The notes beneath the pieces are model-generated. The model did not search any database and was not told the DNA's origin. It saw only the letters and a list, made by a program, of their open reading frames with translations. Source: Phytopythium helicoides (lineage: Eukaryota; Oomycota; Peronosporomycetes; Pythiales; Pythiaceae). Taken from it: 64,000 nucleotides of DNA. Position numbers and translations under genes: made by a program. The stretch is taken from the NCBI GenBank assembly GCA_024867545.1, contig JANFNE010000016.1:62001-126000 (forward strand). The letters run 5' to 3'. Of this stretch, positions 2-30,500 are shown one piece after another; the first letter of the stretch is position 1; every line of letters begins with the position of its first letter.

Positions 2-3000
2 TCCGGTGACGTGAGTGCCGGTACGTCCGGCGCGGTGACGATCGGCTCTGGGTCGAATAGCGCGGGTACGAGCGGCTCTGTGTCTATCGCTGGTGGTTCT
101 TCAACTACGGGAAGCTCGAGCGGCGTGGGAGGCGGGGTGACTGTTTCCGGCGGCACCACGTTGACGAGCGGGACAGCTGGCGGGTCTGTGTCAGTGTCCA
201 GCGGCTCGGGAACAAGCACGGGCGGCTCGGTGTTGGTGGCAAGCGGGAGTGCAAGCAGCGCAAGTGGTGTGAGCGGCGCGCTGAGGCTGACGACGGGCCT
301 ATCGGACGGCAGCAGCAGTCCTTCTGGCGCGAGCAGCGGCGCGGTGGAGCTGTCATCTGGCATCGCATCCAGCGGGACGAGCGGCGCGGTGACGATCAAG
401 TCCGGGACCTCAAGCAGCGCGGGATCGGGCGGGGCCATCACGCTGTCTGTGGGAGGCGGTGCGTCGGGAAGCGGCGGCACCATCAGCGTGACGAGTGGTG
501 CGACGACGGATGTGGCGACGACGACCCCTGCTGCCAGCGGTGCGGTGACGGTGCAGTCGGCTGCCGGTTCGGTTGGTGGCGTGGCATCGATGGCATCTTC
601 TGGCGCGATAACGCTGTCTTCAGGCGTTGCGTCTGGCGGCTCGTCGGGTGCGGTGAGCGTGAAGTCTGGTGCCAGCACGAGCGGCTCGAGCGGTTCAGTG
701 ACAGTGAGCGCGGGAACTGCGAGCGGGGGTTCCGGTGGTGGCATCACGCTGGCCGCCGGTAGCGGTAGCAGCGGCGGTGGTCTGGTGTCGATCGCGAGCG
801 GCGTGTCTACGGCTGGTCAGAGCGGGTCGCTGAAGCTGACGACTGGCGCACAAGACGCGGCGTCGACGCCAATATACAGCGTGACGAGCGGCGCGGTGGA
901 GCTGTCGTCCGGCGGTGCGTCGAGCGGCTCAAGCGGTGCGGTGACGATCAAGTCTGGTGGCGCGACGGGCGGCTCCGGCGGCACGATTTCGGTGTCAGTG
1001 GGCAATGGCGCGAGCGGCACAGGCGGAGCGATCAGTCTGACGGCCGGCGTTGGCGCGTCGACGGGTGGAGCCATCAGCTTGACAGCCGGTGTGGGTGCCA
1101 CGGCGGGTGGTGCGGTGACCGTGTTGAGCGGTGCTTCTGTATCGGGCTCCTCGACGATAAGCGGCGCGGTGTCTATCAAGTCGATGGGGGACAAGTCGTC
1201 TGGCGACGCGACGCTGATGTCCGGTGACGTGAGTGCCGGTACGTCCGGCGCGGTGACGATCGGCTCTGGGTCGAATAGCGCGGGTACGAGCGGCTCTGTG
1301 TCTATCGCTGGTGGTTCTTCAACTACGGGAAGCTCGAGCGGCGTGGGAGGCGGGGTGACTGTTTCCGGCGGCACCACGTTGACGAGCGGGACAGCTGGCG
1401 GGTCTGTGTCAGTGTCCAGCGGCTCGGGAACAAGCACGGGCGGCTCGGTGTTGGTGGCAAGCGGGAGTGCAAGCAGCGCAAGTGGTGTGAGCGGCGCATT
1501 GCTGTTGACGACGGGTGTGCCGAACGGCAGCGGCAGCGGCAGCACCAATCCTTCTGGCGCGAGTAGCGGCGCGGTCGAGCTGTCGTCTGGCATCGCGTCC
1601 AGCGGCAGTAGCGGGACGGTGACGATCAAGTCTGGTTCCTCAAGCAGCGCGGGATCCGGCGGCGACATCACGCTGTCGGTGGGCGACGGAGCGTCGGGAA
1701 GCGGGGGTGCCATCAGCCTGACGAGTGGCGCGACGACGAGTACGACGGCACCTGCTGCCAGTGGTGCGGTGACGGTGCAGTCTGCTGCCGGTTCGGCGTT
1801 GGGTGTGACGTCTGCGGCGTCTTCTGGCGCGATAACGCTGTCTTCTGGCGCTTCCTCCGGTGGCTCGTCAGGTACGGTGAGCGTGAAGTCTGGTCCCAGC
1901 ACGAGCGGCTCGAGCGGTGCGGTGACTGTGAGCGCGGGCAGTGGCAGCGGGACGAGCACTGGTGGCGTGACGATCTCGGGCGGCGCTTCGACGAGCTCTG
2001 GCGGTGTGGGCGGCACCGTGTCGGTGTCTGCCGGCGCTGGGAGCTCAGGCTCCGGTGGTGGCATCACGCTGGCCGCCGGTAGCGGTAGCAGCGGCGGTGG
2101 TCTGGTGTCGATCGCGAGCGGCGTGTCTACGGCCGGTCAGAGCGGGTCGCTGAAGCTGACGACTGGCGCACAAGACGCGGCGTCGACGCCAATATACAGC
2201 GTGACGAGCGGCGCGGTGGAGCTGTCGTCCGGCGGTGCGTCGAGCGGCTCAAGCGGTGCGGTGACGATCAAGTCTGGTGGCGCGACGGGCGGCTCCGGCG
2301 GCACGATTTCGGTGTCAGTGGGCAATGGCGCGAGCGGCACAGGCGGAGCGATCAGTCTGACGGCCGGCGTTGGCGCGTCGACGGGTGGAGCCATCAGCTT
2401 GACAGCCGGTGTGGGTGCCACGGCGGGTGGTGCGGTGACCGTGTTGAGCGGTGCTTCTGTATCGGGCTCCTCGACGATAAGCGGCGCGGTGTCTATCAAG
2501 TCGGTGGCGGACAAGTCCTCTGGTGACGCGACGCTGATGTCTGGCGACGTGAGTACCGGCGCATCCGGTGCGGTGACGGTCGGGTCGGGATCGAACAGCG
2601 CGGGTACGAGCGGCTCTGTGTCTATTGGCGGCGGCTCGGCGACGGGCAGTAGCGGTACTGGTGGCAGCGTGACTGTTTCGGGCGGCGCGACGAAGACGAC
2701 GACGAGCGGAGTAGCTGGCGGGTCTGTGACTGTGTCTGGCGGCTCGGGTGTGAGCACCGGTGGCTTTTTGTCGCTGGCTAGCGGGGGTGCAAGCGGCGCA
2801 AGTGGTGTGAGCGGCGCATTGCTGTTGACGACGGGTGTGCCGAACGGCAGCGGCAGCGGCAGCACCAATCCTTCTGGCGCGAGTAGCGGCGCGGTCGAGC
2901 TGTCGTCTGGCATCGCGTCCAGCGGCAGTAGCGGGACGGTGACGATCAAGTCTGGTTCCTCAAGCAGCGCGGGATCCGGCGGCGACATCACGCTGTCTGT

Positions 3001-6000
3001 GGGAGGCGGTGCGTCGGGAAGCGGCGGGCACCATCAGCGTGACGAGTGGTGCGACGACGATGTGCGACGACGACCCCTGCTGCCAGCGGTGCGGTGACGG
3101 TGCAGTCGGCTGCCGGTTCGGCGTTGGTGGCGTGGCATCGATGGCATCTTCTGGCGCGATAACGCTGTCTTCAGGCGCTTGCGTCCTGGCGGCTCGTCAG
3201 GGTGCGGTGAGCGTGAAGTCTGGTGCCAGCACGAGCGGCTCGAGCGGTGCGGTGACAGTGAGCGCGGAGTAGCGGCAGCGGGCACGAGCACTGGTGGCGT
3301 GACGATCTCGGGCGGCGCTTCGACGAGCTCTGGCGGCGTGGGCGGCGCGGTGTCTGTGTCTGCCGGCGCTGCGAGCGCAGGCTCCGGTGGTGGCATCACG
3401 CTGGCCGCCGGTAGCGGTAGCAGCGGCGGAGGCCTGGTGTCGATCGCGAGCGGCGTGTCTACTGCCGGTCAGAGCGGCTCGCTGAAGTTGACGACTGGCG
3501 CACAAGACGTGGTGACGGCGCCTGCGACGGCGACGTACAGCGTGACGAGTGGCGCGGTGGAGCTATCGTCCGGCGGTGCGTCGGGTGGCTCAAGCGGTGC
3601 GGTGACGGTCAAGTCTGGTGGCGCGACGGGTGGCACTGGCGGCGCGATCACGTTGTCTGTGGGCAATGGCGCGAGCGGCACAGGCGGTGCGATCAGTCTG
3701 ACGGCCGGCATTGGTGCGACGACGGGTGGAGGCATCAGCTTGACAGCCGGAGTGGGCGCCTCGGCGGGTGGTGCGGTGACCGTGCTGAGTGGCGCTTCTG
3801 TATCGAGCTCCCCGACGATAAGCGGCGCGGTGTCTATCAAGTCGGTGGCGGACAAGTCCTCTGGTGACGCGACGCTGATGTCTGGCGACGTGAGTACCGG
3901 CGCATCCGGTGCGGTGACGGTCGGGTCGGGGTCGAACAGCGCGGGTACGAGCGGCTCTGTGTCTATTGGCGGCGGCTCGGCGACGGGCAGTAGCGGTACT
4001 GGTGGCAGCGTGACTGTTTCGGGCGGCGCGACGAAGACGACGACGAGCGGAGTAGCTGGCGGGTCTGTGACTGTGTCTGGCGGCTCGGGTGTGAGCACCG
4101 GTGGCTTTTTGTCGCTGGCTAGCGGGGGTGCAAGCGGCGCAAGTGGTGTGAGCGGCGCATTGCTGTTGACGACGGGTGTGCCGAACGGCAGCGGCAGCGG
4201 CAGCACCAATCCTTCTGGCGCGAGTAGCGGCGCGGTCGAGCTGTCGTCTGGCATCGCGTCCAGCGGCAGTAGCGGGACGGTGACGATCAAGTCTGGTTCC
4301 TCAAGCAGCGCGGGATCCGGCGGCGACATCACGCTGTCGGTGGGCGACGGAGCGTCGGGAAGCGGGGGTGCCATCAGCCTGACGAGTGGCGCGACGACGA
4401 GTACGACGGCACCTGCTGCCAGTGGTGCGGTGACGGTGCAGTCTGCTGCCGGTTCGGCGTTGGGCGTGACGTCTGCGGCGTCTTCTGGCGCGATAACGCT
4501 GTCTTCTGGCGCTTCCTCCGGTGGCTCGTCAGGTACGGTGAGCGTGAAGTCTGGTCCCAGCACGAGCGGCTCGAGCGGTGCGGTGACTGTGAGCGCGGGC
4601 AGTGGCAGCGGGACGAGCACTGGTGGCGTGACGATCTCGGGCGGCGCTTCGACGAGCTCTGGCGGCGTGGGCGGCGCGGTGTCTGTGTCTGCCGGCGCTG
4701 CGAGCGCAGGCTCCGGTGGTGGCATCACGCTGGCCGCCGGTAGCGGTAGCAGCGGCGGAGGCCTGGTGTCGATCGCGAGCGGCGTGTCTACTGCCGGTCA
4801 GAGCGGCTCGCTGAAGTTGACGACTGGCGCACAAGACGTGGTGACGGCGCCTGCGACGGCGACGTACAGCGTGACGAGCGGCGCGGTGGAGCTATCGTCC
4901 GGCGGTGCGTCGGGTGGCTCAAGCGGTGCGGTGACGGTCAAGTCTGGTGGCGCGACGGGTGGCACTGGCGGCGCGATCACGTTGTCTGTGGGCAATGGCG
5001 CGAGCGGCACAGGCGGTGCGATCAGTCTGACGGCCGGCATTGGTGCGACGACGGGTGGAGGCATCAGCTTGACAGCCGGAGTGGGCGCCTCGGCGGGTGG
5101 TGCGGTGACCGTGCTGAGTGGCGCTTCTGTATCGAGCTCCCCGACGATAAGCGGCGCGGTGTCTATCAAGTCGGTGGCGGACAAGTCCTCTGGTGACGCG
5201 ACGCTGATGTCTGGCGACGTGAGTACCGGCGCATCCGGTGCGGTGACGGTCGGGTCGGGGTCGAACAGCGCGGGTACGAGCGGCTCTGTGTCTATTGGCG
5301 GCGGCTCGGCGACGGGCAGTAGCGGTACTGGTGGCAGCGTGACTGTTTCGGGCGGCGCGACGAAGACGACGACGAGCGGAGTAGCTGGCGGGTCTGTGAC
5401 TGTGTCTGGCGGCTCGGGTGTGAGCACCGGTGGCTTTTTGTCGCTGGCTAGCGGGGGTGCAAGCGGCGCAAGTGGTGTGAGCGGCGCATTGCTGTTGACG
5501 ACGGGTGTGCCGAACGGCAGCGGCAGCAGCACCAATCCTTCTGGCGCGAGTAGCGGCGCGGTCGAGCTGTCGTCTGGCATCGCGTCCAGCGGCAGTAGCG
5601 GGACGGTGACGATCAAGTCTGGTTCCTCAAGCAGCGCGGGATCCGGCGGCGACATCACGCTGTCGGTGGGCGACGGAGCGTCGGGAAGCGGGGGTGCCAT
5701 CAGCCTGACGAGTGGCGCGACGACGAGTACGACGGCACCTGCTGCCAGTGGTGCGGTGACGGTGCAGTCTGCTGCCGGTTCGGCGTTGGGCGTGACGTCT
5801 GCGGCGTCTTCTGGCGCGATAACGCTGTCTTCTGGCGCTTCCTCCGGTGGCTCGTCAGGTACGGTGAGCGTGAAGTCTGGTCCCAGCACGAGCGGCTCGA
5901 GCGGTGCGGTGACTGTGAGCGCGGGCAGTGGCAGCGGGACGAGCACTGGTGGCGTGACGATCTCGGGCGGCGCTTCGACGAGCTCTGGCGGCGTGGGCGG

Positions 6001-9000
6001 CGCGGTGTCTGTGTCTGCCGGCGCTGCGAGCGCAGGCTCCGGTGGTGGCATCACGCTGGCCGCCGGTAGCGGTAGCAGCGGCGGAGGCCTGGTGTCGATC
6101 GCGAGCGGCGTGTCTACTGCCGGTCAGAGCGGCTCGCTGAAGTTGACGACTGGCGCACAAGACGTGGTGACGGCGCCTGCGACGGCGACGTACAGCGTGA
6201 CGAGCGGCGCGGTGGAGCTATCGTCCGGCGGTGCGTCGGGTGGCTCAAGCGGTGCGGTGACGGTCAAGTCTGGTGGCGCGACGGGTGGCACTGGCGGCGC
6301 GATCACGTTGTCTGTGGGCAATGGCGCGAGCGGCACAGGCGGTGCGATCAGTCTGACGGCCGGCATTGGTGCGACGACGGGTGGAGGCATCAGCTTGACA
6401 GCCGGAGTGGGCGCCTCGGCGGGTGGTGCGGTGACCGTGCTGAGTGGCGCTTCTGTATCGAGCTCCCCGACGATAAGCGGCGCGGTGTCTATCAAGTCGG
6501 TGGCGGACAAGTCCTCTGGTGACGCGACGCTGATGTCTGGCGACGTGAGTACCGGCGCATCCGGTGCGGTGACGGTCGGGTCGGGGTCGAACAGCGCGGG
6601 TACGAGCGGCTCTGTGTCTATTGGCGGCGGCTCGGCGACGGGCAGTAGCGGTACTGGTGGCAGCGTGACTGTTTCGGGCGGCGCGACGAAGACGACGACG
6701 AGCGGAGTAGCTGGCGGGTCTGTGACTGTGTCTGGCGGCTCGGGTGTGAGCACCGGTGGCTTTTTGTCGCTGGCTAGCGGGGGTGCAAGCGGCGCAAGTG
6801 GTGTGAGCGGCGCATTGCTGTTGACGACGGGTGTACCGAACGGCAGCGGCAGCGGCAGCACCAATCCTTCTGGCGCGAGTAGCGGCGCGGTCGAGCTGTC
6901 GTCTGGCATCGCGTCCAGCGGCAGTAGCGGGACGGTGACGATCAAGTCTGGTTCCTCAAGCAGCGCGGGATCCGGCGGCGACATCACGCTGTCGGTGGGC
7001 GACGGAGCGTCGGGAAGCGGGGGTGCCATCAGCCTGACGAGTGGCGCGACGACGAGTACGACGGCACCTGCTGCCAGTGGTGCGGTGACGGTGCAGTCTG
7101 CTGCCGGTTCGGCGTTGGGCGTGACGTCTGCGGCGTCTTCTGGCGCGATAACGCTGTCTTCTGGCGCTTCCTCCGGTGGCTCGTCAGGTACGGTGAGCGT
7201 GAAGTCTGGTCCCAGCACGAGCGGCTCGAGCGGTGCGGTGACTGTGAGCGCGGGCAGTGGCAGCGGGACGAGCACTGGTGGCGTGACGATCTCGGGCGGC
7301 GCTTCGACGAGCTCTGGCGGCGTGGGCGGCGCGGTGTCTGTGTCTGCCGGCGCTGCGAGCGCAGGCTCCGGTGGTGGCATCACGCTGGCCGCCGGTAGCG
7401 GTAGCAGCGGCGGAGGCCTGGTGTCGATCGCGAGCGGCGTGTCTACTGCCGGTCAGAGCGGCTCGCTGAAGTTGACGACTGGCGCACAAGACGTGGTGAC
7501 GGCGCCTGCGACGGCGACGTACAGCGTGACGAGTGGCGCGGTGGAGCTATCGTCCGGCGGTGCGTCGGGTGGCTCAAGCGGTGCGGTGACGGTCAAGTCT
7601 GGTGGCGCGACGGGTGGCACTGGCGGCGCGATCACGTTGTCTGTGGGCAATGGCGCGAGCGGCACAGGCGGTGCGATCAGTCTGACGGCCGGCATTGGTG
7701 CGACGACGGGTGGAGGCATCAGCTTGACAGCCGGAGTGGGCGCCTCGGCGGGTGGTGCGGTGACCGTGCTGAGTGGCGCTTCTGTATCGAGCTCCCCGAC
7801 GATAAGCGGCGCGGTGTCTATCAAGTCGGTGGCGGACAAGTCCTCTGGTGACGCGACGCTGATGTCTGGCGACGTGAGTACCGGCGCATCCGGTGCGGTG
7901 ACGGTCGGGTCGGGGTCGAACAGCGCGGGTACGAGCGGCTCTGTGTCTATTGGCGGCGGCTCGGCGACGGGCAGTAGCGGTACTGGTGGCAGCGTGACTG
8001 TTTCGGGCGGCGCGACGAAGACGACGACGAGCGGAGTAGCTGGCGGGTCTGTGACTGTGTCTGGCGGCTCGGGTGTGAGCACCGGTGGCTTTTTGTCGCT
8101 GGCTAGCGGGGGTGCAAGCGGCGCAAGTGGTGTGAGCGGCGCATTGCTGTTGACGACGGGTGTGCCGAACGGCAGCGGCAGCGGCAGCACCAATCCTTCT
8201 GGCGCGAGTAGCGGCGCGGTCGAGCTGTCGTCTGGCATCGCGTCCAGCGGCAGTAGCGGGACGGTGACGATCAAGTCTGGTTCCTCAAGCAGCGCGGGAT
8301 CCGGCGGCGACATCACGCTGTCGGTGGGCGACGGAGCGTCGGGAAGCGGGGGTGCCATCAGCCTGACGAGTGGCGCGACGACGAGTACGACGGCACCTGC
8401 TGCCAGTGGTGCGGTGACGGTGCAGTCTGCTGCCGGTTCGGCGTTGGGCGTGACGTCTGCGGCGTCTTCTGGCGCGATAACGCTGTCTTCTGGCGCTTCC
8501 TCCGGTGGCTCGTCAGGTACGGTGAGCGTGAAGTCTGGTCCCAGCACGAGCGGCTCGAGCGGTGCGGTGACTGTGAGCGCGGGCAGTGGCAGCGGGACGA
8601 GCACTGGTGGCGTGACGATCTCGGGCGGCGCTTCGACGAGCTCTGGCGGCGTGGGCGGCGCGGTGTCTGTGTCTGCCGGCGCTGCGAGCGCAGGCTCCGG
8701 TGGTGGCATCACGCTGGCCGCCGGTAGCGGTAGCAGCGGCGGAGGCCTGGTGTCGATCGCGAGCGGCGTGTCTACTGCCGGTCAGAGCGGCTCGCTGAAG
8801 TTGACGACTGGCGCACAAGACGTGGTGACGGCGCCTGCGACGGCTACGTACAGCGTGACGAGTGGCGCGGTGGAGCTATCGTCCGGCGGTGCGTCGGGTG
8901 GCTCAAGCGGTGCGGTGACGGTCAAGTCTGGTGGCGCGACGGGTGGCACTGGCGGCGCGATCACGTTGTCTGTGGGCAATGGCGCGAGCGGCACAGGCGG

Positions 9001-12000
9001 TGCGATCAGTCTGACGGCCGGCATTGGTGCGACGACGGGTGGAGGCATCAGCTTGACAGCCGGAGTGGGCGCCTCGGCGGGTGGTGCGGTGACCGTGCTG
9101 AGTGGCGCTTCTGTATCGAGCTCCCCGACGATAAGCGGCGCGGTGTCTATCAAGTCGGTGGCGGACAAGTCCTCTGGTGACGCGACGCTGATGTCTGGCG
9201 ACGTGAGTACCGGCGCATCCGGTGCGGTGACGGTCGGGTCGGGGTCGAACAGCGCGGGTACGAGCGGCTCTGTGTCTATTGGCGGCGGCTCGGCGACGGG
9301 CAGTAGCGGTACTGGTGGCAGCGTGACTGTTTCGGGCGGCGCGACGAAGACGACGACGAGCGGAGTAGCTGGCGGGTCTGTGACTGTGTCTGGCGGCTCG
9401 GGTGTGAGCACCGGTGGCTTTTTGTCGCTGGCTAGCGGGGGTGCAAGCGGCGCAAGTGGTGTGAGCGGCGCATTGCTGTTGACGACGGGTGTGCCGAACG
9501 GCAGCGGCAGCGGCAGCACCAATCCTTCTGGCGCGAGCAGCGGCGCGGTGGAGCTGTCATCTGGCATCGCATCCAGCGGGACGAGCGGCGCGGTGACGAT
9601 CAAGTCCGGGACCTCAAGCAGCGCGGGATCGGGCGGGGCCATCACGCTGTCTGTGGGAGGCGGTGCGTCGGGAAGCGGCGGCACCATCAGCGTGACGAGT
9701 GGTGCGACGACGGATGTGGCGACGACGACCCCTGCTGCCAGCGGTGCGGTGACGGTGCAGTCGGCTGCCGGTTCGGTTGGTGGCGTGGCATCGATGGCAT
9801 CTTCTGGCGCGATAACGCTGTCTTCAGGCGTTGCGTCTGGCGGCTCGTCGGGTGCGGTGAGCGTGAAGTCTGGTGCCAGCACGAGCGGCTCGAGCGGTTC
9901 AGTGACAGTGAGCGCGAGTAGCGGCAGCGGCACGAGCACTGGCGGCGTAACGATTTCGGGCGGCGCTTCGACGAGCTCTGGCGGTGTGGGCGGCACCGTG
10001 TCGGTGTCTGCCGGCGCTGGGAGCTCAGGCTCCGGTGGTGGCATCACGCTGGCCGCCGGTAGCGGTAGCAGCGGCGGAGGCCTGGTGTCGATCGCGAGCG
10101 GCGTGTCTACTGCCGGTCAGAGCGGCTCGCTGAAGTTGACGACTGGCGCACAAGACGTGGTGACGGCGCCTGCGACGGCGACGTACAGCGTGACGAGTGG
10201 CGCGGTGGAGCTATCGTCCGGCGGTGCGTCGGGTGGCTCAAGCGGTGCGGTGACGGTCAAGTCTGGTGGCGCGACGGGTGGCACTGGCGGCGCGATCACG
10301 TTGTCTGTGGGCAATGGCGCGAGCGGCACAGGCGGTGCGATCAGTCTGACGGCCGGCATTGGTGCGACGACGGGTGGAGGCATCAGCTTGACAGCCGGAG
10401 TGGGCGCCTCGGCGGGTGGTGCGGTGACCGTGCTGAGTGGCGCTTCTGTATCGAGCTCCCCGACGATAAGCGGCGCGGTGTCTATCAAGTCGGTGGCGGA
10501 CAAGTCCTCTGGTGACGCGACGCTGATGTCTGGCGACGTGAGTACCGGCGCATCCGGTGCGGTGACGGTCGGGTCGGGGTCGAACAGCGCGGGTACGAGC
10601 GGCTCTGTGTCTATTGGCGGCGGCTCGGCGACGGGCAGTAGCGGTACTGGTGGCAGCGTGACTGTTTCGGGCGGCGCGACGAAGACGACGACGAGCGGAG
10701 TAGCTGGCGGGTCTGTGACTGTGTCTGGCGGCTCGGGTGTGAGCACCGGTGGCTTTTTGTCGCTGGCTAGCGGGGGTGCAAGCGGCGCAAGTGGTGTGAG
10801 CGGCGCATTGCTGTTGACGACGGGTGTGCCGAACGGCAGCGGCAGCGGCAGCACCAATCCTTCTGGCGCGAGTAGCGGCGCGGTCGAGCTGTCGTCTGGC
10901 ATCGCGTCCAGCGGCAGTAGCGGGACGGTGACGATCAAGTCTGGTTCCTCAAGCAGCGCGGGATCCGGCGGCGACATCACGCTGTCGGTGGGCGACGGAG
11001 CGTCGGGAAGCGGGGGTGCCATCAGCCTGACGAGTGGCGCGACGACGAGTACGACGGCACCTGCTGCCAGTGGTGCGGTGACGGTGCAGTCTGCTGCCGG
11101 TTCGGCGTTGGGTGTGACGTCTGCGGCGTCTTCTGGCGCGATAACGCTGTCTTCTGGCGCTTCCTCCGGTGGCTCGTCAGGTACGGTGAGCGTGAAGTCT
11201 GGTCCCAGCACGAGCGGCTCGAGCGGTGCGGTGACTGTGAGCGCGGGCAGTGGCAGCGGGACGAGCACTGGTGGCGTGACGATCTCGGGCGGCGCTTCGA
11301 CGAGCTCTGGCGGCGTGGGCGGCGCGGTGTCTGTGTCTGCCGGCGCTGCGAGCGCAGGCTCCGGTGGTGGCATCACGCTGGCCGCCGGTAGCGGTAGCAG
11401 CGGCGGAGGCCTGGTGTCGATCGCGAGCGGCGTGTCTACTGCCGGTCAGAGCGGCTCGCTGAAGTTGACGACTGGCGCACAAGACGTGGTGACGGCGCCT
11501 GCGACGGCGACGTACAGCGTGACGAGTGGCGCGGTGGAGCTATCGTCCGGCGGTGCGTCGGGTGGCTCAAGCGGTGCGGTGACGGTCAAGTCTGGTGGCG
11601 CGACGGGTGGCACTGGCGGCGCGATCACGTTGTCTGTGGGCAATGGCGCGAGCGGCACAGGCGGTGCGATCAGTCTGACGGCCGGCATTGGTGCGACGAC
11701 GGGTGGAGGCATCAGCTTGACAGCCGGAGTGGGCGCCTCGGCGGGTGGTGCGGTGACCGTGCTGAGTGGCGCTTCTGTATCGAGCTCCCCGACGATAAGC
11801 GGCGCGGTGTCTATCAAGTCGGTGGCGGACAAGTCCTCTGGTGACGCGACGCTGATGTCTGGCGACGTGAGTACCGGCGCATCCGGTGCGGTGACGGTCG
11901 GGTCGGGGTCGAACAGCGCGGGTACGAGCGGCTCTGTGTCTATTGGCGGCGGCTCGGCGACGGGCAGTAGCGGTACTGGTGGCAGCGTGACTGTTTCGGG

Positions 12001-15000
12001 CGGCGCGACGAAGACGACGACGAGCGGAGTAGCTGGCGGGTCTGTGACTGTGTCTGGCGGCTCGGGTGTGAGCACCGGTGGCTTTTTGTCGCTGGCTAGC
12101 GGGGGTGCAAGCGGCGCAAGTGGTGTGAGCGGCGCATTGCTGTTGACGACGGGTGTGCCGAACGGCAGCGGCAGCGGCAGCACCAATCCTTCTGGCGCGA
12201 GTAGCGGCGCGGTCGAGCTGTCGTCTGGCATCGCGTCCAGCGGCAGTAGCGGGACGGTGACGATCAAGTCTGGTTCCTCAAGCAGCGCGGGATCCGGCGG
12301 CGACATCACGCTGTCGGTGGGCGACGGAGCGTCGGGAAGCGGGGGTGCCATCAGCCTGACGAGTGGCGCGACGACGAGTACGACGGCACCTGCTGCCAGT
12401 GGTGCGGTGACGGTGCAGTCTGCTGCCGGTTCGGCGTTGGGCGTGACGTCTGCGGCGTCTTCTGGCGCGATAACGCTGTCTTCTGGCGCTTCCTCCGGTG
12501 GCTCGTCAGGTACGGTGAGCGTGAAGTCTGGTCCCAGCACGAGCGGCTCGAGCGGTGCGGTGTCTGTGTCTGCCGGCGCTGCGAGCGCAGGCTCCGGTGG
12601 TGGCATCACGCTGGCCGCCGGTAGCGGTAGCAGCGGCGGAGGCCTGGTGTCGATCGCGAGCGGCGTGTCTACTGCCGGTCAGAGCGGCTCGCTGAAGTTG
12701 ACGACTGGCGCACAAGACGTGGTGACGGCGCCTGCGACGGCGACGTACAGCGTGACGAGCGGCGCGGTGGAGCTATCGTCCGGCGGTGCGTCGGGTGGCT
12801 CAAGCGGTGCGGTGACGGTCAAGTCTGGTGGCGCGACGGGTGGCACTGGCGGCGCGATCACGTTGTCTGTGGGCAATGGCGCGAGCGGCACAGGCGGTGC
12901 GATCAGTCTGACGGCCGGCATTGGTGCGACGACGGGTGGAGGCATCAGCTTGACAGCCGGAGTGGGCGCCTCGGCGGGTGGTGCGGTGACCGTGCTGAGT
13001 GGCGCTTCTGTATCGAGCTCCCCGACGATAAGCGGCGCGGTGTCTATCAAGTCGGTGGCGGACAAGTCCTCTGGTGACGCGACGCTGATGTCTGGCGACG
13101 TGAGTACCGGCGCATCCGGTGCGGTGACGGTCGGGTCGGGGTCGAACAGCGCGGGTACGAGCGGCTCTGTGTCTATTGGCGGCGGCTCGGCGACGGGCAG
13201 TAGCGGTACTGGTGGCAGCGTGACTGTTTCGGGCGGCGCGACGAAGACGACGACGAGCGGAGTAGCTGGCGGGTCTGTGACTGTGTCTGGCGGCTCGGGT
13301 GTGAGCACCGGTGGCTTTTTGTCGCTGGCTAGCGGGGGTGCAAGCGGCGCAAGTGGTGTGAGCGGCGCATTGCTGTTGACGACGGGTGTGCCGAACGGCA
13401 GCGGCAGCGGCAGCACCAATCCTTCTGGCGCGAGTAGCGGCGCGGTCGAGCTGTCGTCTGGCATCGCGTCCAGCGGCAGTAGCGGGACGGTGACGATCAA
13501 GTCTGGTTCCTCAAGCAGCGCGGGATCCGGCGGCGACATCACGCTGTCGGTGGGCGACGGAGCGTCGGGAAGCGGGGGTGCCATCAGCCTGACGAGTGGC
13601 GCGACGACGAGTACGACGGCACCTGCTGCCAGTGGTGCGGTGACGGTGCAGTCTGCTGCCGGTTCGGCGTTGGGCGTGACGTCTGCGGCGTCTTCTGGCG
13701 CGATAACGCTGTCTTCTGGCGCTTCCTCCGGTGGCTCGTCAGGTACGGTGAGCGTGAAGTCTGGTCCCAGCACGAGCGGCTCGAGCGGTGCGGTGACTGT
13801 GAGCGCGGGCAGTGGCAGCGGGACGAGCACTGGTGGCGTGACGATCTCGGGCGGCGCTTCGACGAGCTCTGGCGGCGTGGGCGGCGCGGTGTCTGTGTCT
13901 GCCGGCGCTGCGAGCGCAGGCTCCGGTGGTGGCATCACGCTGGCCGCCGGTAGCGGTAGCAGCGGCGGAGGCCTGGTGTCGATCGCGAGCGGCGTGTCTA
14001 CTGCCGGTCAGAGCGGCTCGCTGAAGTTGACGACTGGCGCACAAGACGTGGTGACGGCGCCTGCGACGGCGACGTACAGCGTGACGAGTGGCGCGGTGGA
14101 GCTATCGTCCGGCGGTGCGTCGGGTGGCTCAAGCGGTGCGGTGACGGTCAAGTCTGGTGGCGCGACGGGTGGCACTGGCGGCGCGATCACGTTGTCTGTG
14201 GGCAATGGCGCGAGCGGCACAGGCGGTGCGATCAGTCTGACGGCCGGCATTGGTGCGACGACGGGTGGAGGCATCAGCTTGACAGCCGGAGTGGGCGCCT
14301 CGGCGGGTGGTGCGGTGACCGTGCTGAGTGGCGCTTCTGTATCGAGCTCCCCGACGATAAGCGGCGCGGTGTCTATCAAGTCGGTGGCGGACAAGTCCTC
14401 TGGTGACGCGACGCTGATGTCTGGCGACGTGAGTACCGGCGCATCCGGTGCGGTGACGGTCGGGTCGGGGTCGAACAGCGCGGGTACGAGCGGCTCTGTG
14501 TCTATTGGCGGCGGCTCGGCGACGGGCAGTAGCGGTACTGGTGGCAGCGTGACTGTTTCGGGCGGCGCGACGAAGACGACGACGAGCGGAGTAGCTGGCG
14601 GGTCTGTGACTGTGTCTGGCGGCTCGGGTGTGAGCACCGGTGGCTTTTTGTCGCTGGCTAGCGGGGGTGCAAGCGGCGCAAGTGGTGTGAGCGGCGCATT
14701 GCTGTTGACGACGGGTGTGCCGAACGGCAGCGGCAGCGGCAGCACCAATCCTTCTGGCGCGAGTAGCGGCGCGGTCGAGCTGTCGTCTGGCATCGCGTCC
14801 AGCGGCAGTAGCGGGACGGTGACGATCAAGTCTGGTTCCTCAAGCAGCGCGGGATCCGGCGGCGACATCACGCTGTCGGTGGGCGACGGAGCGTCGGGAA
14901 GCGGGGGTGCCATCAGCCTGACGAGTGGCGCGACGACGAGTACGACGGCACCTGCTGCCAGTGGTGCGGTGACGGTGCAGTCTGCTGCCGGTTCGGCGTT

Positions 15001-18000
15001 GGGTGTGACGTCTGCGGCGTCTTCTGGCGCGATAACGCTGTCTTCTGGCGCTTCCTCCGGTGGCTCGTCAGGTACGGTGAGCGTGAAGTCTGGTCCCAGC
15101 ACGAGCGGCTCGAGCGGTGCGGTGACTGTGAGCGCGGGCAGTGGCAGCGGGACGAGCACTGGTGGCGTGACGATCTCGGGCGGCGCTTCGACGAGCTCTG
15201 GCGGCGTGGGCGGCGCGGTGTCTGTGTCTGCCGGCGCTGCGAGCGCAGGCTCCGGTGGTGGCATCACGCTGGCCGCCGGTAGCGGTAGCAGCGGCGGAGG
15301 CCTGGTGTCGATCGCGAGCGGCGTGTCTACTGCCGGTCAGAGCGGCTCGCTGAAGTTGACGACTGGCGCACAAGACGTGGTGACGGCGCCTGCGACGGCG
15401 ACGTACAGCGTGACGAGTGGCGCGGTGGAGCTATCGTCCGGCGGTGCGTCGGGTGGCTCAAGCGGTGCGGTGACGGTCAAGTCTGGTGGCGCGACGGGTG
15501 GCACTGGCGGCGCGATCACGTTGTCTGTGGGCAATGGCGCGAGCGGCACAGGCGGTGCGATCAGTCTGACGGCCGGCATTGGTGCGACGACGGGTGGAGG
15601 CATCAGCTTGACAGCCGGAGTGGGCGCCTCGGCGGGTGGTGCGGTGACCGTGCTGAGTGGCGCTTCTGTATCGAGCTCCCCGACGATAAGCGGCGCGGTG
15701 TCTATCAAGTCGGTGGCGGACAAGTCCTCTGGTGACGCGACGCTGATGTCTGGCGACGTGAGTACCGGCGCATCCGGTGCGGTGACGGTCGGGTCGGGGT
15801 CGAACAGCGCGGGTACGAGCGGCTCTGTGTCTATTGGCGGCGGCTCGGCGACGGGCAGTAGCGGTACTGGTGGCAGCGTGACTGTTTCGGGCGGCGCGAC
15901 GAAGACGACGACGAGCGGAGTAGCTGGCGGGTCTGTGACTGTGTCTGGCGGCTCGGGTGTGAGCACCGGTGGCTTTTTGTCGCTGGCTAGCGGGGGTGCA
16001 AGCGGCGCAAGTGGTGTGAGCGGCGCATTGCTGTTGACGACGGGTGTGCCGAACGGCAGCGGCAGCGGCAGCACCAATCCTTCTGGCGCGAGTAGCGGCG
16101 CGGTCGAGCTGTCGTCTGGCATCGCGTCCAGCGGCAGTAGCGGGACGGTGACGATCAAGTCTGGTTCCTCAAGCAGCGCGGGATCCGGCGGCGACATCAC
16201 GCTGTCGGTGGGCGACGGAGCGTCGGGAAGCGGGGGTGCCATCAGCCTGACGAGTGGCGCGACGACGAGTACGACGGCACCTGCTGCCAGTGGTGCGGTG
16301 ACGGTGCAGTCTGCTGCCGGTTCGGCGTTGGGCGTGACGTCTGCGGCGTCTTCTGGCGCGATAACGCTGTCTTCTGGCGCTTCCTCCGGTGGCTCGTCAG
16401 GTACGGTGAGCGTGAAGTCTGGTCCCAGCACGAGCGGCTCGAGCGGTGCGGTGACTGTGAGCGCGGGCAGTGGCAGCGGGACGAGCACTGGTGGCGTGAC
16501 GATCTCGGGCGGCGCTTCGACGAGCTCTGGCGGCGTGGGCGGCGCGGTGTCTGTGTCTGCCGGCGCTGCGAGCGCAGGCTCCGGTGGTGGCATCACGCTG
16601 GCCGCCGGTAGCGGTAGCAGCGGCGGAGGCCTGGTGTCGATCGCGAGCGGCGTGTCTACTGCCGGTCAGAGCGGCTCGCTGAAGTTGACGACTGGCGCAC
16701 AAGACGTGGTGACGGCGCCTGCGACGGCGACGTACAGCGTGACGAGTGGCGCGGTGGAGCTATCGTCCGGCGGTGCGTCGGGTGGCTCAAGCGGTGCGGT
16801 GACGGTCAAGTCTGGTGGCGCGACGGGTGGCACTGGCGGCGCGATCACGTTGTCTGTGGGCAATGGCGCGAGCGGCACAGGCGGTGCGATCAGTCTGACG
16901 GCCGGCATTGGTGCGACGACGGGTGGAGGCATCAGCTTGACAGCCGGAGTGGGCGCCTCGGCGGGTGGTGCGGTGACCGTGCTGAGTGGCGCTTCTGTAT
17001 CGAGCTCCCCGACGATAAGCGGCGCGGTGTCTATCAAGTCGGTGGCGGACAAGTCCTCTGGTGACGCGACGCTGATGTCTGGCGACGTGAGTACCGGCGC
17101 ATCCGGTGCGGTGACGGTCGGGTCGGGGTCGAACAGCGCGGGTACGAGCGGCTCTGTGTCTATTGGCGGCGGCTCGGCGACGGGCAGTAGCGGTACTGGT
17201 GGCAGCGTGACTGTTTCGGGCGGCGCGACGAAGACGACGACGAGCGGAGTAGCTGGCGGGTCTGTGACTGTGTCTGGCGGCTCGGGTGTGAGCACCGGTG
17301 GCTTTTTGTCGCTGGCTAGCGGGGGTGCAAGCGGCGCAAGTGGTGTGAGCGGCGCATTGCTGTTGACGACGGGTGTGCCGAACGGCAGCGGCAGCGGCAG
17401 CACCAATCCTTCTGGCGCGAGTAGCGGCGCGGTCGAGCTGTCGTCTGGCATCGCGTCCAGCGGCAGTAGCGGGACGGTGACGATCAAGTCTGGTTCCTCA
17501 AGCAGCGCGGGATCCGGCGGCGACATCACGCTGTCGGTGGGCGACGGAGCGTCGGGAAGCGGGGGTGCCATCAGCCTGACGAGTGGCGCGACGACGAGTA
17601 CGACGGCACCTGCTGCCAGTGGTGCGGTGACGGTGCAGTCTGCTGCCGGTTCGGCGTTGGGTGTGACGTCTGCGGCGTCTTCTGGCGCGATAACGCTGTC
17701 TTCTGGCGCTTCCTCCGGTGGCTCGTCAGGTACGGTGAGCGTGAAGTCTGGTCCCAGCACGAGCGGCTCGAGCGGTGCGGTGACTGTGAGCGCGGGCAGT
17801 GGCAGCGGGACGAGCACTGGTGGCGTGACGATCTCGGGCGGCGCTTCGACGAGCTCTGGCGGCGTGGGCGGCGCGGTGTCTGTGTCTGCCGGCGCTGCGA
17901 GCGCAGGCTCCGGTGGTGGCATCACGCTGGCCGCCGGTAGCGGTAGCAGCGGCGGAGGCCTGGTGTCGATCGCGAGCGGCGTGTCTACTGCCGGTCAGAG

Positions 18001-18800
18001 CGGCTCGCTGAAGTTGACGACTGGCGCACAAGACGTGGTGACGGCGCCTGCGACGGCGACGTACAGCGTGACGAGTGGCGCGGTGGAGCTATCGTCCGGC
18101 GGTGCGTCGGGTGGCTCAAGCGGTGCGGTGACGGTCAAGTCTGGTGGCGCGACGGGTGGCACTGGCGGCGCGATCACGTTGTCTGTGGGCAATGGCGCGA
18201 GCGGCACAGGCGGTGCGATCAGTCTGACGGCCGGCATTGGTGCGACGACGGGTGGAGGCATCAGCTTGACAGCCGGAGTGGGCGCCTCGGCGGGTGGTGC
18301 GGTGACCGTGCTGAGTGGCGCTTCTGTATCGAGCTCCCCGACGATAAGCGGCGCGGTGTCTATCAAGTCGGTGGCGGACAAGTCCTCTGGTGACGCGACG
18401 CTGATGTCTGGCGACGTGAGTACCGGCGCATCCGGTGCGGTGACGGTCGGGTCGGGGTCGAACAGCGCGGGTACGAGCGGCTCTGTGTCTATTGGCGGCG
18501 GCTCGGCGACGGGCAGTAGCGGTACTGGTGGCAGCGTGACTGTTTCGGGCGGCGCGACGAAGACGACGACGAGCGGAGTAGCTGGCGGGTCTGTGACTGT
18601 GTCTGGCGGCTCGGGTGTGAGCACCGGTGGCTTTTTGTCGCTGGCTAGCGGGGGTGCAAGCGGCGCAAGTGGTGTGAGCGGCGCATTGCTGTTGACGACG
18701 GGTGTGCCGAACGGCAGCGGCAGTGGCAGCACCAATCCTTCTGGCGCGAGTAGCGGCGCGGTCGAGCTGTCGTCTGGCATCGCGTCCAGCGGCAGTAGCG
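2..18800 (+). repeat. Coding macrosatellite: about 14 tandem units of about 1.33 kb
   Basis: A fixed landmark (codons for SIKSVADKSSGDATL or its variant) recurs about 14 times, first near 1170 and last near 18360. The spacing is 1329 bp for most neighbouring units. Exceptions are 1218 and 1320 bp in the first three units, one 1326 bp unit (a lost 3-bp AGC/GGC step near 5525), one 1335 bp unit (8782-10116) and one 1233 bp unit (11446-12678) lacking 96 bp. All length changes are multiples of three. Units from 3469 to 18000 differ at only scattered positions, for example gtgacgagtggc versus gtgacgagcggc. Units before 3300 belong to a distinct sequence class. The pattern fits recent unequal exchange and homogenisation. 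Confidence 0.95.
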
Positions 18801-20947
18801 GGACGGTGTCGATCAAATCGGGCGCGGCCTCTGCTGGTACGTCGGGTTCGTTGAGTTTTTCTGTTGGAACCTCGGGTAGCGCCAGTGGATCGGCTTTGAG
18901 TTTGAAGTCGGGAGCAAGCATCGCCACTGGTGTAGCTGGAGTTGGTGGTGACGTGACGATCGAAGCTGGAGCATCGAACTACTCGACAGGAGGCGGCATC
19001 ACGATGACGTCTGGTATTGGTTACACCAAGAACTCGGGAAGCATTTCTTTGAAGAGCGCGGATGGTGGATCAAGTGGTGTCAGCGGAGATATTACTGCGT
19101 CAACGGGGACTACAAGCGCCGGGAGCTCCGGAGCCTTGACCCTGTCGACTGGAACTGCTGTTGGAGGCGCCGGCGGAGATATTACCATTGCGGTCGGATC
19201 CGGTTCAGTTGGTGTCGGAGGCATGCTCTCGCTATCTGCTGGTGAAACCACAGCCTCTGCTGCGACTGGAGGAGAGTTAGCATTGGTGTCAGGCAAAGGT
19301 GGAAGTAGCGGCGGTGCAGTTACCCTTCGAAGTGGTGACGGAGGCTCAAGTGCTGGTGGTGCGATCTCCATTCAAAGTGGCACCAGTACATCAGCAGCAA
19401 GCGGCGCCATCACGATCTCAAGCGGACAGAAGGCGTCAACAAGCGGCAATACCGGCTCAATCTCGTTATCCTCTGGAACTACGTCAGCAGGCACAAGTGG
19501 CGCTATTACACTGTCGTCAGGAGCTGCGACTGGTGGGGCGGGAGGATCAGTCTCTCTGTTTGTCGGAGATGGAACTACAGCTACTGGCGGTAGCGTGACT
19601 ATCACAGCAGGAAAGAGCTCAAGCGCTTCAGGCACAGGTGGCGGTGTTACGCTCCAAGCAGGTGGAAGTGTTGCTGGTGGAGCTACTGCGATATCTGGCG
19701 GAACCGCTTCAACTGGATCGGGAGGATCAATCAATCTCTCAAGTGGATCAAGTTCAAGTGGCGCTAGTGGCGCAGTTCAGCTTTTGTCGGCATCTGGATC
19801 TTCTGGATCGGGAACTGTTACAGTCGGATCTGGAGGAGCAAGCGGACCGACTGGGTCATTGACTCTGTCTACAGGCACATCAACCAGTGGCTTATCTGGA
19901 GACATTACTCTCGGTGTCGGTGTCGGCGCTACGACCGGCGGCTCGTTCACAGCATCTGCTGGCCAAGGATCTGCTGGTGCGGGAGGCGCAGTTTCGCATA
20001 CTGCTGGCGGAGGTTCAACAACCGGTGGCGGTGTTAGTGTGACTGCAGGAAGCGGTGGCACTGGTGCTGGCGGATCTCTAGCTTTAACGTCCGGCACAAG
20101 TACCAGCGCTGCAGGTGGTGGAGCAACTATCACAACTGGTGCTGGCGCGACAAGCGGCGCGATTGGACTATCAACTGGCCAAGGGTCAAATGGAGCTAGT
20201 GGCGGCATTACTCTGTCTACTGGCGGATCCAGTGGCGGCGCAGGCGGTTCCGTGTCGGTGTCTGTCGGAAGCGGAAACACTGGCAATGGCGGGGCTGTGA
20301 TGCTAACTGCTGGCACGACGACTGCATCCGCCGGAAACGGAGGGTCAGTCGAGCTGACTGCTGGCGGCGGGGGCTCATCAGGACTTGGCGGGTCGGTGAA
20401 CATTCACACTGGCTCCGGATCGACGAACGGAGGCTTCTATGTCTACAGTCCAGCTTCTGCGACGGCGGCATTCAAGATCACGGATCTGCAGCTTCTTGCG
20501 TCGAGCGCGGCGATTTCGTTGACTTCAACGGCATCGAATATCCAGCTGTCAGCACAGACGGCGGTCGCGATCACGGGAACATCAACGACGATCTCGGGCG
20601 GCCCACTTTATGTGGACTCGCAGGACTTTGTTGTGTCAAACGGCGGCGCGGATGTCTTCTTGGTTGATGTGAGCACGGGCGATGTGGATGTGAAGCAGCA
20701 GCTCAAGTTCAGCGCCAACAGCGCGGCGATCAACCACTCAGGCACGACATCGTTGACTGTGTCAAGCCCTCAAGTTGTGTTTGCAACTGGCGACGTGGTG
20801 CTGGACGGAAGCTGGAAGTCGACGGGTCCAATCGTCAACTCCGCATGCGTCTTGGGCATGATTCAGCACGACAGCAGCTACCTGTACCTGTGCATGGGCG
20901 ACCGCACGTCTGCAGTCTGGAAGCGAGTGGAGTTGCTGGCTCAGTAA
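2..20947 (+). CDS. Giant Ser/Gly/Ala-rich tandem-repeat protein, 5' partial
   Basis: One frame is open from base 2 to the TAA at 20945-20947, about 6,980 codons once a cluster of indels at 3027-3285 is allowed for. No intron is apparent. The true start lies upstream; the GTG at 11 is an internal Val codon. The protein is built from short rungs of about 15-16 residues of the form GGA-[VI]-[TS]-[VLI]-x-SG, the spacing expected of a parallel beta-solenoid (inference). Rungs are grouped into about 14 near-identical units of 443 residues, ending near 18800. From 18800 to 20420 the rungs continue but are diverged and use more A/T-ending codons. The last about 170 residues are non-repetitive, mixed in composition, and contain the only cysteines I see (about 20846 and 20891). 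I see no C-terminal membrane segment or GPI-type tail. A cell-surface, matrix or adhesive role is plausible but unproven; I recognise no named family. Confidence 0.85.
3027..3285 (+). other. Cluster of about 9 indels inside the giant gene (probable assembly error)
   Basis: Aligned with the intact copies at 471-720 and 9680-9930, this stretch shows an extra g in gcggcgggcacc, a lost g before atgtg, a lost g after it, two extra bases in ggttcggcgttgg, extra c in gcgcttgcg, extra c in cgtcctgg, extra a in gtcagggtg, extra g in gcgcggagtag and extra g in cagcgggcac. The net change is +6, so both flanks stay in the same frame. The local break produces a stop at 3095-3097 and a TAG near 3270. Insertions dominate. 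Confidence 0.85.
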
Positions 20948-27520: not shown

Positions 27521-30500
27521 CTACTCAGCCGCCGCGACGTACTTGAGTTGATGGAAGCCGCAGTTGGCGATGGCGCCTGGCCCGCCACGGCCGTCGCTGC
27601 CGCCGTAGTTGGCGTCGCACGTGCAGAGCCCCGTGGAGAAGTCGCAGTAGCCGTGGTTCGAGCACAGCGCGTTCTCGCGCGTGCCCTTGACGCTTGCCTG
27701 CCCCTGCAGCAGCTCGCCCCCCGCGGCGATCGACACCTTGCCCGACCCGTCCAGCCCGTTGCCGTTGACGCTGTCTCGCAGAGATGTGGTGGAAGCTGCG
27801 AGTCGAGGAAGGTCGCCGAGTTCCCACAGGAAGTCCACAGTGATGACTGTCGTGGACACGGAGCACGCCGTCGCGCCGCCTATGAAGCCGACGGTCACCT
27901 CCTCGATGTTGTTCAGGGCGTCAAGAGCTGCTTTGACAGTCGCTGCAGTTGCATCAAAGCGGATACTCGTCGTCCATTCATCGCGGAATGATAGCATGAA
28001 AGTCCCAGCTGTAGCGGTGCACTGGATCACCTGGCGCTCGATTGCGTCCTCGTTTGTGTTGAAGTCGTCTCCACGCGGACACTCACCTGGCAACTCAGCG
28101 GTTTAGTCATGTCCAAAGGTTATACACGAATGCATGGGGGCGACGTACGCATCGAGCAATCGTATCCGAGGAATGACGGATCACAAAGACATGAGCGGAT
28201 CTTGGTGCCGTCCCACGTGAGCGGATTGTTCGGGTCTTCCCCGTACGTGAACCCAGCTAGCGTCCCCTTGACCTTGATCAGCGGTGCGAGATCGCGAAGA
28301 GCTAAACACCGTCCGTTGCCAGAGCACTCCACCGAAGCTCCACCGCACAGCACTAACACAACAAAACCAAGACACGATTAGCACCCGATCTGTACTCTCC
28401 AGTAGCCGCGAAAAAAGCAAGCCTACTCAGCTCGCATGCTGCTCCAGTGTACGGTCTTGGACATCGGCAAATGCCTGAACTGCGATCACAGGAGCCGACA
28501 CTGCTGCACTCTGTTCGCGATTTGTGCGCTACGTTGACACCACTCGGGTAGTCAAACCACGATGTACCAAATGGACAGGTGCGCTCGGAGCAATCTCCGC
28601 TACGCCATCCCTTTGCACATGAGCAACGATATGACGGGCTCCCCGAGCATGTACCATGGCCACTGCAAGCTAGTTCTCCTGGGCATGCAACAGGAATTCT
28701 CGAGAGAGCACCACAATCGCCACGGTTCACGGCTAAAGTGCCGATATCGCCACGCCCGTTGCTGTTCGTGTAGCCGACGTAGCAATTGCACCGACCGAGC
28801 TTGCTGTCATCGCAAGAACCGCGATTGGAGCAGCTATCACTCTCTTTAGTTCCATCAACCGATAAAATTGTGCCAAAAGAAGATCCACCGCCTGCAACAG
28901 CGATAGAAGATCCTGGAGATAAACCGGATCCATCAACCACAACAGTTGGAAGACTTTCATCAACACACTACCAGGTTAGTTTGTCAGCATTTAATGACGA
29001 TCGTAAAAAAGTTGTACGTACTTGCCGAAATTCTGTGTAAACGTCAAGCTCATGGTGTTAGTTGGAGTCTCGCACGCTTGGGCCCCCGAAAAGCTAACGT
29101 TTACACCTTGTAGTAAGGGCAACGACTCTAAGAGGATTCGTTGTACACGCGCCGGAGAGGCGTTTGCAATAATTGACTTGGAAGTAAAACCGCGAAATGC
29201 AACAGTGAATGTGCCTCCACCAGCATCAACGGAGTGACTCATTTGAGTGCTTGGGCTCTGTACAAATGGCTGATCAAACGGGATGCACACAGAACCTTTC
29301 ACGACTTCAGTAAGCGCTATAGGGAATTGGAGTCGGTTAGAAATGTGTGCGAGTCCATTGTTTCCTCTGTTTGTTTGGTCAGCAAGAAGTTCTCTCAAAT
29401 CCCCATCACCTGCCGACCCTGTGGACTTGACGACGACAAAGCTAATGGTGATCGTAGTACCAGCCACGGTACACGCTGTAGTGATGTTGCTCGAATATAC
29501 CACATCTATGTCAACGAGGTAGGGAACGCCGACCACAAGCTTATTGCGAAGATCTGTTGCAGAAATGTCGAACGAAATATCAGAGACAACAGTGCCATCT
29601 TCAAAAGTGAGCGCAAAAGCTCCACTGGTCGCCGCACAGAGAAACGATTGCTGCTCGATGACGCGGCAAGAATCAACGCCTTTGACAAGCTCTTTCGTTT
29701 CCGTGTCGATAAACCCGTCGCCTCCGTTTAGTGTGAGGGTGACAACGACACCTTTGACATCCAACTTGGAAAATGTCATGGCTGGGAGGTCACCGACGAG
29801 ATCTCTTCTCCACAACTGGGCGAATGACAGAGTTACATAGGTACCTGACGTTGAGCAAATTGTGGTTGCCCCGCTTGAGAGTGTTACATCGATTCGGCCA
29901 GCGAAACTAAGCTGGTTGAGATATGTCTGGAAAGTATTGGTGTCGGCGTTGAATGGGATGTTCCTCACCGTTTCATTTCCGAACGTAAAAGAAAACGTCC
30001 CTCCATCAGCAGCGCAGATGAACTGCTGCACTTCCAATACTTTCCATCTCGGAACGAGAGCATTGTGCATCGCGTTGGATGGAGGAAAAGCAATCTGCCA
30101 GTTTCTTTGTGTGGCAGAAACGTCTGTGCGAGTCACAGTGACAGCCGCAACACCTTGAAGTGCTAAAAGCGATGTCGCGACTGATCTCCCGTTTGAGTCG
30201 ATGGATGCAAGAGCGTTGAACGACATTGGTCGAGTCGACTGCTTGCCGAAGTTTAGTCGGAAAGTCCCCGCTGTGAGTGGTGCATCCGACTGTAACGAGA
30301 CTGTTTGAAGCGGGTATGCTGTCTGGCACTGAATGAGCTGTATTTCGTCAAGCTGACCAGTGGTGAGCGGGTCATCGCCAACCGGACAAATCTTGAGTGC
30401 GCAACTTGGTCCTGTGTACCCGGTGTCACACTCACAACCATACAACACGTCTGCGTCCCACACGTCTTCATAGCGCAGCAGGAACGAGTCGTACAGTTCT

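What the first reader, a model, noticed from the sequence alone, without database searches (positions are those of the whole stretch)
2..20947. Giant intronless gene encoding a beta-solenoid-like repeat protein of unknown function
More than 6,900 residues, almost only Ser, Gly, Ala, Thr, Val, Ile and Leu, in regular 15-16 residue rungs with alternating hydrophobic residues, and no cysteine until the C-terminal cap. I know no named family with this layout. Scale and composition suggest an extracellular fibre or adhesive.
Basis: partly seen in the sequence, partly recalled or inferred. Interest (0 to 1): 0.75.

Follow-up and report, generated by a model that had tools for sequence, protein, structure and literature searches.

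The report
Giant oomycete fibre with phage-type chaperone
The window holds the tail end of a much larger repeat gene of an oomycete (a water-mould-like microbe) that probably encodes a secreted fibre close to a micrometre long, and the same array, outside the window, carries a folding domain otherwise known from phage tail spikes, which suggests how such a fibre could be built.

Summary
The repeat protein is real, but the reported gene model is only its last quarter. The window is contig C9:62001-126000 of an oomycete genome (64 elicitin matches). The array runs from the contig's first base to C9:82947: about 27,200 codons of 15-residue, cysteine-free rungs, read in 12 frame pieces and cut off at the contig edge. 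Window 2-20947 is not one open frame: a stop at 3095-3097 lies in a noisy seam. Unit variants differ mostly at silent sites (dN/dS 0.16-0.43 in 9 informative pairs of 15). The cap recurs in another dataset at 85% identity and weakly on a second array, C49. The interpretation changes because of C9:36.6-37.0 kb, inside the array, which encodes a Peptidase_S74 / intramolecular-chaperone domain (39.8 bits, cut-off 22; closest solved structure MYRF ICA). Two ENA proteins share 'S74-like, then rungs'. Best reading: a giant secreted fibre whose chains are trimerised by an internal S74 chaperone. Not shown: expression, one continuous polypeptide, a trimer, or the fold (both AlphaFold models below pLDDT 40).

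The parts
2..3026 (+). End of the upstream subarray (window units of 440 aa; 438-aa units further left) in open frame; the same open frame continues leftwards to C9:46696
3027..3265 (+). Frame-disturbed seam with a stop at 3095-3097. Against one sister unit 12 gap bases and 26 mismatches; against another (C9:71504-72148) the seam has no mismatch but many one-base gaps. Most likely an assembly or consensus fault
3266..18376 (+). 443-aa-type subarray, mostly 1329-nt units from anchors at 3851 to 17048; stop-free and Cys-free
18377..20419 (+). Diverged terminal rungs leading to the cap
20420..20944 (+). C-terminal cap (175 aa, 2 Cys); 85% identical relative P0001, 35% identical region on C49; stop codon at 20945-20947

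Best explanation
Shown: an oomycete gene array of about 83 kb (C9:1-82947, truncated at the contig start) codes for 15-residue Gly/Ser-rich rungs under purifying selection. It contains one internal Peptidase_S74/ICA domain at about C9:36.6-37.0 kb and ends in a small cap inside the window. Inferred: it makes one giant secreted fibre protein. The S74 domain, as in phage tailspikes, Bdellovibrio MAT fibres and animal MYRF, brings three chains together and nucleates folding of the rung shaft. The rungs then stack into a long, cysteine-free rod of roughly 0.9 micrometre, and the cap closes or tips the distal end. Whether the S74 domain also cuts the chain is open. In the window's gene the SDxxxK motif is split between two reading frames; in the two ENA relatives the Ser and Lys are replaced, which would leave a non-cutting trimerisation node. 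The likely place is the surface coat, hairs or adhesive of spores or cysts.
For: Coding in some frame across the 83 kb apart from the S74 stretch itself. dN/dS 0.16-0.43 in 9 informative unit pairs of 15 compared. 15-residue period far above shuffles. PF13884 at C9:36723-36890, 38.9 bits in the genome search and 39.8 bits, E 5.6e-10 by hmmscan, cut-off 22. Best solved match MYRF ICA 7dc3, E 0.0015; next a phage neck appendage protein 3gud, E 0.58, not significant alone. Stalk, core and tail of the domain align in order with P0002/P0005 at 32-48% identity, and the tail's frame runs on into rungs. S74/ICA domains drive trimerisation of beta-helical fibres (passages of PMC3742443, PMC8326128 and PMC10769870). 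The cap is conserved in P0001.
Against: No transcript, protein, localisation or N-terminal signal for this gene. Many frame changes could mean decay, not sequencing error. AlphaFold models uninformative (pLDDT 39.7 and 39.5). The domain is internal, whereas phage and MAT S74 domains are C-terminal. Only the core piece matches PF13884: the stalk piece and the tail piece match no S74 model on their own, and the relatives match it weakly (P0005 E 0.06) or not at all (P0002). The paralogous array C49 has no S74 hit (0 of 9). Copy number in identical tandem repeats may be wrong.
Confidence: 0.58

Rival explanations
1. A monomeric beta-solenoid (or other Gly/Ser-rich fibre) adhesive or wall protein in which the S74 domain is a passenger and plays no part in assembly.
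For: A short alternating hydrophobic strand motif about every 15 residues. Predicted strands about every 15 residues, but nearly all at pLDDT below 50. C49 has the same kind of rungs without a detected S74.
Against: The S74-like domain is kept, with its stalk and the following rungs, in P0002 and P0005, which speaks for a role.
Confidence: 0.22
2. A recently decayed or silent giant gene; intact stretches survive only because the tandem units were copied recently.
For: Frame changes in at least 8 places, one stop inside a piece and one in the window's seam. Fragments of the 916-aa unit lie scattered in the genome with stops and frame-breaking indels.
Against: Stop-free pieces of 7,496, 6,139 and 5,949 codons. 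Low dN/dS between diverged units. In 6 of the 8 seams examined (s1-s5, s7; s5 only in its left part) the indels are one- or two-base insertions relative to sister copies; s6 had no sister copy. The eighth, the window's seam, has 10 gap bases (8 insertions, 2 deletions) against the unit at C9:71504, with no mismatch in between. Indels without substitutions look like long-read errors.
Confidence: 0.15
3. A domesticated virus fibre gene: polinton-like viruses carry PF13884 fibre proteins of up to 3.9 k residues (PMC12220804 passages), and this genome has five S74 hits on contigs of 35-88 kb, of which the three I read look like virus fibre proteins. The host would have captured and expanded one.
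For: Other S74 loci on small contigs; the family's link to PLVs.
Against: The C-terminus has no match in phages and the cap none in viral contigs. The neighbouring genes downstream look host-type (DnaJ, homeodomain-PHD, and an importin-like frame below Pfam's cut-off). Origin was not tested by a tree.
Confidence: 0.15

Closest known systems
Peptidase_S74 / ICA intramolecular chaperone (PF13884): phage endosialidase tailspikes, animal MYRF
   Same: Profile match above cut-off; closest solved chain is MYRF ICA
   Different: Internal, with thousands of rung residues on both sides; not at the C-terminus of a tailspike or ahead of a membrane segment; SDxxxK motif split between frames here and lost in P0002/P0005
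Bdellovibrio MAT (mosaic adhesive trimeric) fibres (PMC10769870, passages seen)
   Same: Cellular, non-viral S74-linked fibres; some members replace S74 with another tip
   Different: Their paper models one fibre as about 550 angstroms long; this array would be more than ten times longer if its rungs stack as assumed; eukaryotic; no sequence comparison was made
PLV fibre proteins with C-terminal S74 (PMC12220804, passages seen)
   Same: Large modular S74 proteins in protist genomes
   Different: Up to 3.9 k residues, S74 often C-terminal, other repeat types
Giant1-5 surface proteins of Apilactobacillus kunkeei (PMC12863079, passages seen)
   Same: Very large extracellular proteins; Giant1-4 have a solenoid part
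   Different: 3,000-8,000 residues; Giant1-3 are mostly alpha-helical repeats with an N-terminal solenoid; no S74 in the passages seen; bacterial
Oomycete large zoospore vesicle glycoproteins such as Lpv (PMC3869178, passages seen)
   Same: High-molecular-mass oomycete glycoproteins (Lpv above 400 kDa) held in zoospore vesicles
   Different: No sequence comparison made; that Lpv is a repeat protein is only recalled; Lpv is retained, not secreted, during encystment

Membership tests
Peptidase_S74 / ICA (PF13884) | Profile match above the curated cut-off | tested here: met
   39.8 bits, cut-off 22, positions 5-55 of 58; 38.9 bits in the genome search (at E up to 10 the same search rings in 2 of 14 control genomes, over the cut-off in 1)
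Peptidase_S74 / ICA (PF13884) | SDxxxK catalytic Ser-Lys motif | tested here: inconclusive
   S-D-R-R-L in one frame, the Lys in the next; Ser and Lys replaced in P0002 and P0005
Peptidase_S74 / ICA (PF13884) | C-terminal position, as in phage and MAT fibres | tested here: not met
   The frame of the domain's tail stays open for 1,430 codons, 1,195 of them in the rung piece 37018-40605; P0005 matches across the join
Peptidase_S74 / ICA (PF13884) | Homotrimer formation and self-cleavage | not testable with these tools
   Needs expressed protein
Beta-solenoid proteins | Stacked rungs of fixed length with inward hydrophobic residues | tested here: inconclusive
   15-residue hydrophobic period, but models at pLDDT 39.7 and 39.5
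Named bacterial adhesins and phage fibre families (NCBIfam, PHROGs) | Profile match of unit, C-terminus or C49 ends | tested here: not met
   0 NCBIfam families for 4 of 4 proteins; one PHROG of unknown function at E 0.063 for 1 of 4
Oomycete Lpv / Vsv1 / Car spore glycoproteins | Their repeat sequences and stage-specific vesicle location | not tested
   No sequences in hand; unit and C-terminus have no Pfam family, so no thrombospondin-type domain was seen

The most novel reading that the evidence does not exclude
One oomycete gene encodes a secreted polypeptide of more than 27,000 residues, among the longest known in any eukaryote. An internal S74 chaperone trimerises it, and possibly cuts it, to give micrometre-scale fibres: a eukaryotic, non-viral use of phage-spike maturation to build an extracellular hair or adhesive filament.
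Probability: 0.28. Interest if true: 0.9.

Novelty: new variant of a known kind. Interest (0 to 1): 0.67.

Why it matters
S74/ICA chaperones are known at the ends of phage spikes, in Bdellovibrio fibres, in virus fibres of protists and in MYRF. An internal one inside a rung array of about 27,000 residues in an oomycete would be a new layout and size class, as far as the searches and passages in this report show. It would also give a concrete candidate for oomycete surface filaments whose composition is unsolved: a passage of PMC5771568 calls identifying the compounds of the Saprolegnia cyst hairs a major research challenge. Whether this species has such hairs is unknown. Gene prediction may well miss such genes (my inference): here the array appears as broken pieces at a contig end.

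Tried and rejected
Tried without result: Pfam on unit and C-terminus (only the relative P0003 gave two hits below their cut-offs), NCBIfam and PHROGs (one weak PHROG), PDB sequences for the C-terminus and for a unit profile, phages with the C-terminus, viral contigs and bacterial/archaeal genomes with the cap, giants of similar length in the protein database (the 870 candidates sharing most words were scored, none passed), Rfam on the window. One search found 4 proteins among 7,992 scored candidates, also a capped list. Paper searches: 'peptidase S74' with 'oomycete' gave 0 papers; no title or abstract start in the listings names this protein. Searches held 464 and 1,717 papers and showed 12 each, and the library holds open-licence PMC papers only, so this is no proof of absence. 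PMC11573180 on huge proteins was searched by terms only: no 'oomycete' or 'stramenopile' in it. Fold searches were not run because both models are below pLDDT 40.

Rejected: satellite DNA without coding meaning (low dN/dS); introns as the cause of the frame changes on C9 (the changes with sister copies are small insertions without a gap; s6 had no sister copy to compare); two separate genes meeting at 36.9 kb (the frame runs on from the S74 tail into rungs, and P0002/P0005 have the same join).

Dropped or weak rows: 2 of 9 pieces were read off-frame. In one search, 6 of 15 pairs were identical or one change apart and give no usable ratio; one of the 9 informative pairs rests on 3 changes. Of the 8 seams, s6 had no sister copy and s5 aligned only in its left part.
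Full report
What is there. The window is C9:62001-126000 of an assembly of 49.06 Mb in 100 contigs. The genome is an oomycete's: 64 elicitin (PF00964) matches here, none in 14 control genomes. The window's first 21 kb is a tandem array with a 1329-nt period that ends in a non-repetitive cap and a stop at 20945-20947. Eight units give identical 443-aa proteins.

The reading frame. Frame 2 is not open from 2 to 20947. It stops at 3095-3097, and about 3027-3265 lies out of frame. Against the unit at C9:66191 this stretch carries 12 gap bases and 26 mismatches between clean flanks. Against the unit at C9:71504 it carries 10 gap bases (8 insertions, 2 deletions) and no mismatch within the seam; the 26 mismatches of that alignment lie on either side. 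Indels without substitutions suggest an unpolished consensus. After the seam the frame is open to the terminal stop, with no Cys before the cap.

The array is four times longer than reported. Protein searches find units back to the first bases of the contig, and the contig starts inside the array. A frame-tracking script finds coding in some frame over C9:1-82843, apart from 36570-36939, where the S74 domain lies; from 82844 on its composition score no longer recognises the cap. The 12 rung pieces taken hold 27,236 codons, 1,494 strand motifs, no Cys and one internal stop. There are at least three unit families: 916 aa (C9:3 to about 36 kb), about 438 aa (from about 50 kb), and 443 aa, with other rungs at 37-49 kb. 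Of the 8 seams examined, 6 show one- or two-base insertions in one copy against its sisters (one of them seen only in its left part), one had no sister copy, and one is the window's cluster. I read this as read error, but cannot show it. Copy numbers of identical units may be wrong.

Coding and selection. Between unit variants dN/dS is 0.16-0.43 in the 9 informative pairs of 15; the other 6 pairs are identical or one change apart. For example dS 0.324 and dN 0.090 between the 438- and 443-aa units, dS 0.068 and dN 0.011 within the 916-aa family. Units are not independent samples. Scattered fragments of the 916-aa unit lie on other contigs; of the 5 examined, 5 have frame-breaking indels, 3 have a stop, and the ratios are 0.37-0.46, as expected if one side of each comparison is no longer constrained.

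Rungs. Hydrophobic residues repeat every 15 residues (autocorrelation 0.26-0.39, shuffle maximum 0.04-0.08, 7 of 9 pieces; 2 rows off-frame). AlphaFold2 on a unit (4 sequences) and on the last 534 residues (5 sequences) gave mean pLDDT 39.7 and 39.5, with strands about every 15 residues. This neither confirms nor excludes a solenoid; a trimeric shaft might not be modelled well as a single chain. At an assumed 0.48 nm per rung (recalled) the pieces would stack to about 0.87 micrometre.

The chaperone domain. At C9:36570-36939 the rungs are interrupted. The stretch translates into a Peptidase_S74 domain: 38.9 bits at C9:36723-36890 in a genome search, 39.8 bits, E 5.6e-10, cut-off 22 by hmmscan. 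The best solved-structure match is the MYRF ICA domain (7dc3, E 0.0015), then a phage neck appendage protein (3gud, E 0.58, not significant alone). The domain is read in three pieces because of two frame changes; only the core piece matches the Pfam model, the stalk and tail pieces do not. All three align in order with P0002, an ENA protein found through the window's own C-terminus: stalk 41%, core 39%, tail plus the first rungs 39%. With P0005 the stalk is 48% identical (28.9 bits against a shuffle maximum of 18.9 in 200), stalk end plus core 32% (E 3.1e-6), and the tail into the rungs 39% (C9:36881-37546, E 8.2e-28). So 'S74-like, then rungs, in one chain' is shared. In P0002 and P0005 the Ser and Lys of SDxxxK are replaced, and their own profile match is weak (P0005 E 0.06, P0002 none). 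In C9 the SD half and the Lys lie in adjacent frames, so activity cannot be judged.

Relatives in the same genome. A second giant array, C49:61.7-95.3 kb, has rungs and a cap-like end (35% identity, E 3.4e-8) but no S74 hit. A signal-peptide-like stretch lies near C49:61149, followed by two in-frame stops, so its N-terminus is unresolved. One search lists 9 S74 matches, 7 over the cut-off: C9:36.7 kb, C9:536 kb, and five on contigs of 35-88 kb. The two sub-threshold ones on C13 are the halves of one domain split by a putative 73-nt GT-AG intron, at the end of a 4,305-codon frame whose readable part holds a different, tail-fibre-like repeat.

How it probably works. ICA/S74 domains act as trimers, chaperone beta-helical stalks and can cut themselves (passages of PMC3742443, PMC8326128, PMC10769870). 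Placed mid-chain, such a domain could register three enormous, low-complexity chains, which might otherwise mispair. If it does not cut (as P0002/P0005 suggest), it stays as a node; if it cuts (C9, open), it would split the product into parts of at least 12,200 and about 15,400 residues. Surface location is inferred from composition, absence of Cys and fibre analogy only.

Verdict. The interpretation as a fibre gains a mechanism from outside the window. I rate it a new variant of a known kind.

Noticed in passing
G000 C13:203353-203608 (L050): A 4,305-codon frame, tail-fibre-like repeats in the part read, ends in an S74 domain with an SDxxxK motif, split by a putative 73-nt GT-AG intron.
   Followed up: partly
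G000 C40, C80, C87, C88, C97 (L045-L049): Five S74 matches on contigs of 35-88 kb; the three read (L045, L047, L049) look like virus fibre proteins, perhaps of polinton-like viruses.
   Followed up: partly
G000 C50:180421-218379 and 318384-319922, with copies on C26 and C28 (L039): A fragment of the 916-aa unit (about 1.65 kb, with a stop) recurs with nearly equal scores; in L039 it lies in a 3.4-kb stretch repeated after 4.9 kb, whose end overlaps a Crinkler-domain frame.
   Followed up: partly
G000 C49:61149-95275: A second giant rung array of about 33 kb with 6 frame changes in the frame-tracking script and a signal-peptide-like start followed by two in-frame stops.
   Followed up: partly
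window 40529-44167: A 1,212-aa frame with homeodomain matches (3 stretches) and a PHD finger.
   Followed up: no
window 28991-30892: A frame on the minus strand with teneurin-type EGF matches.
   Followed up: no
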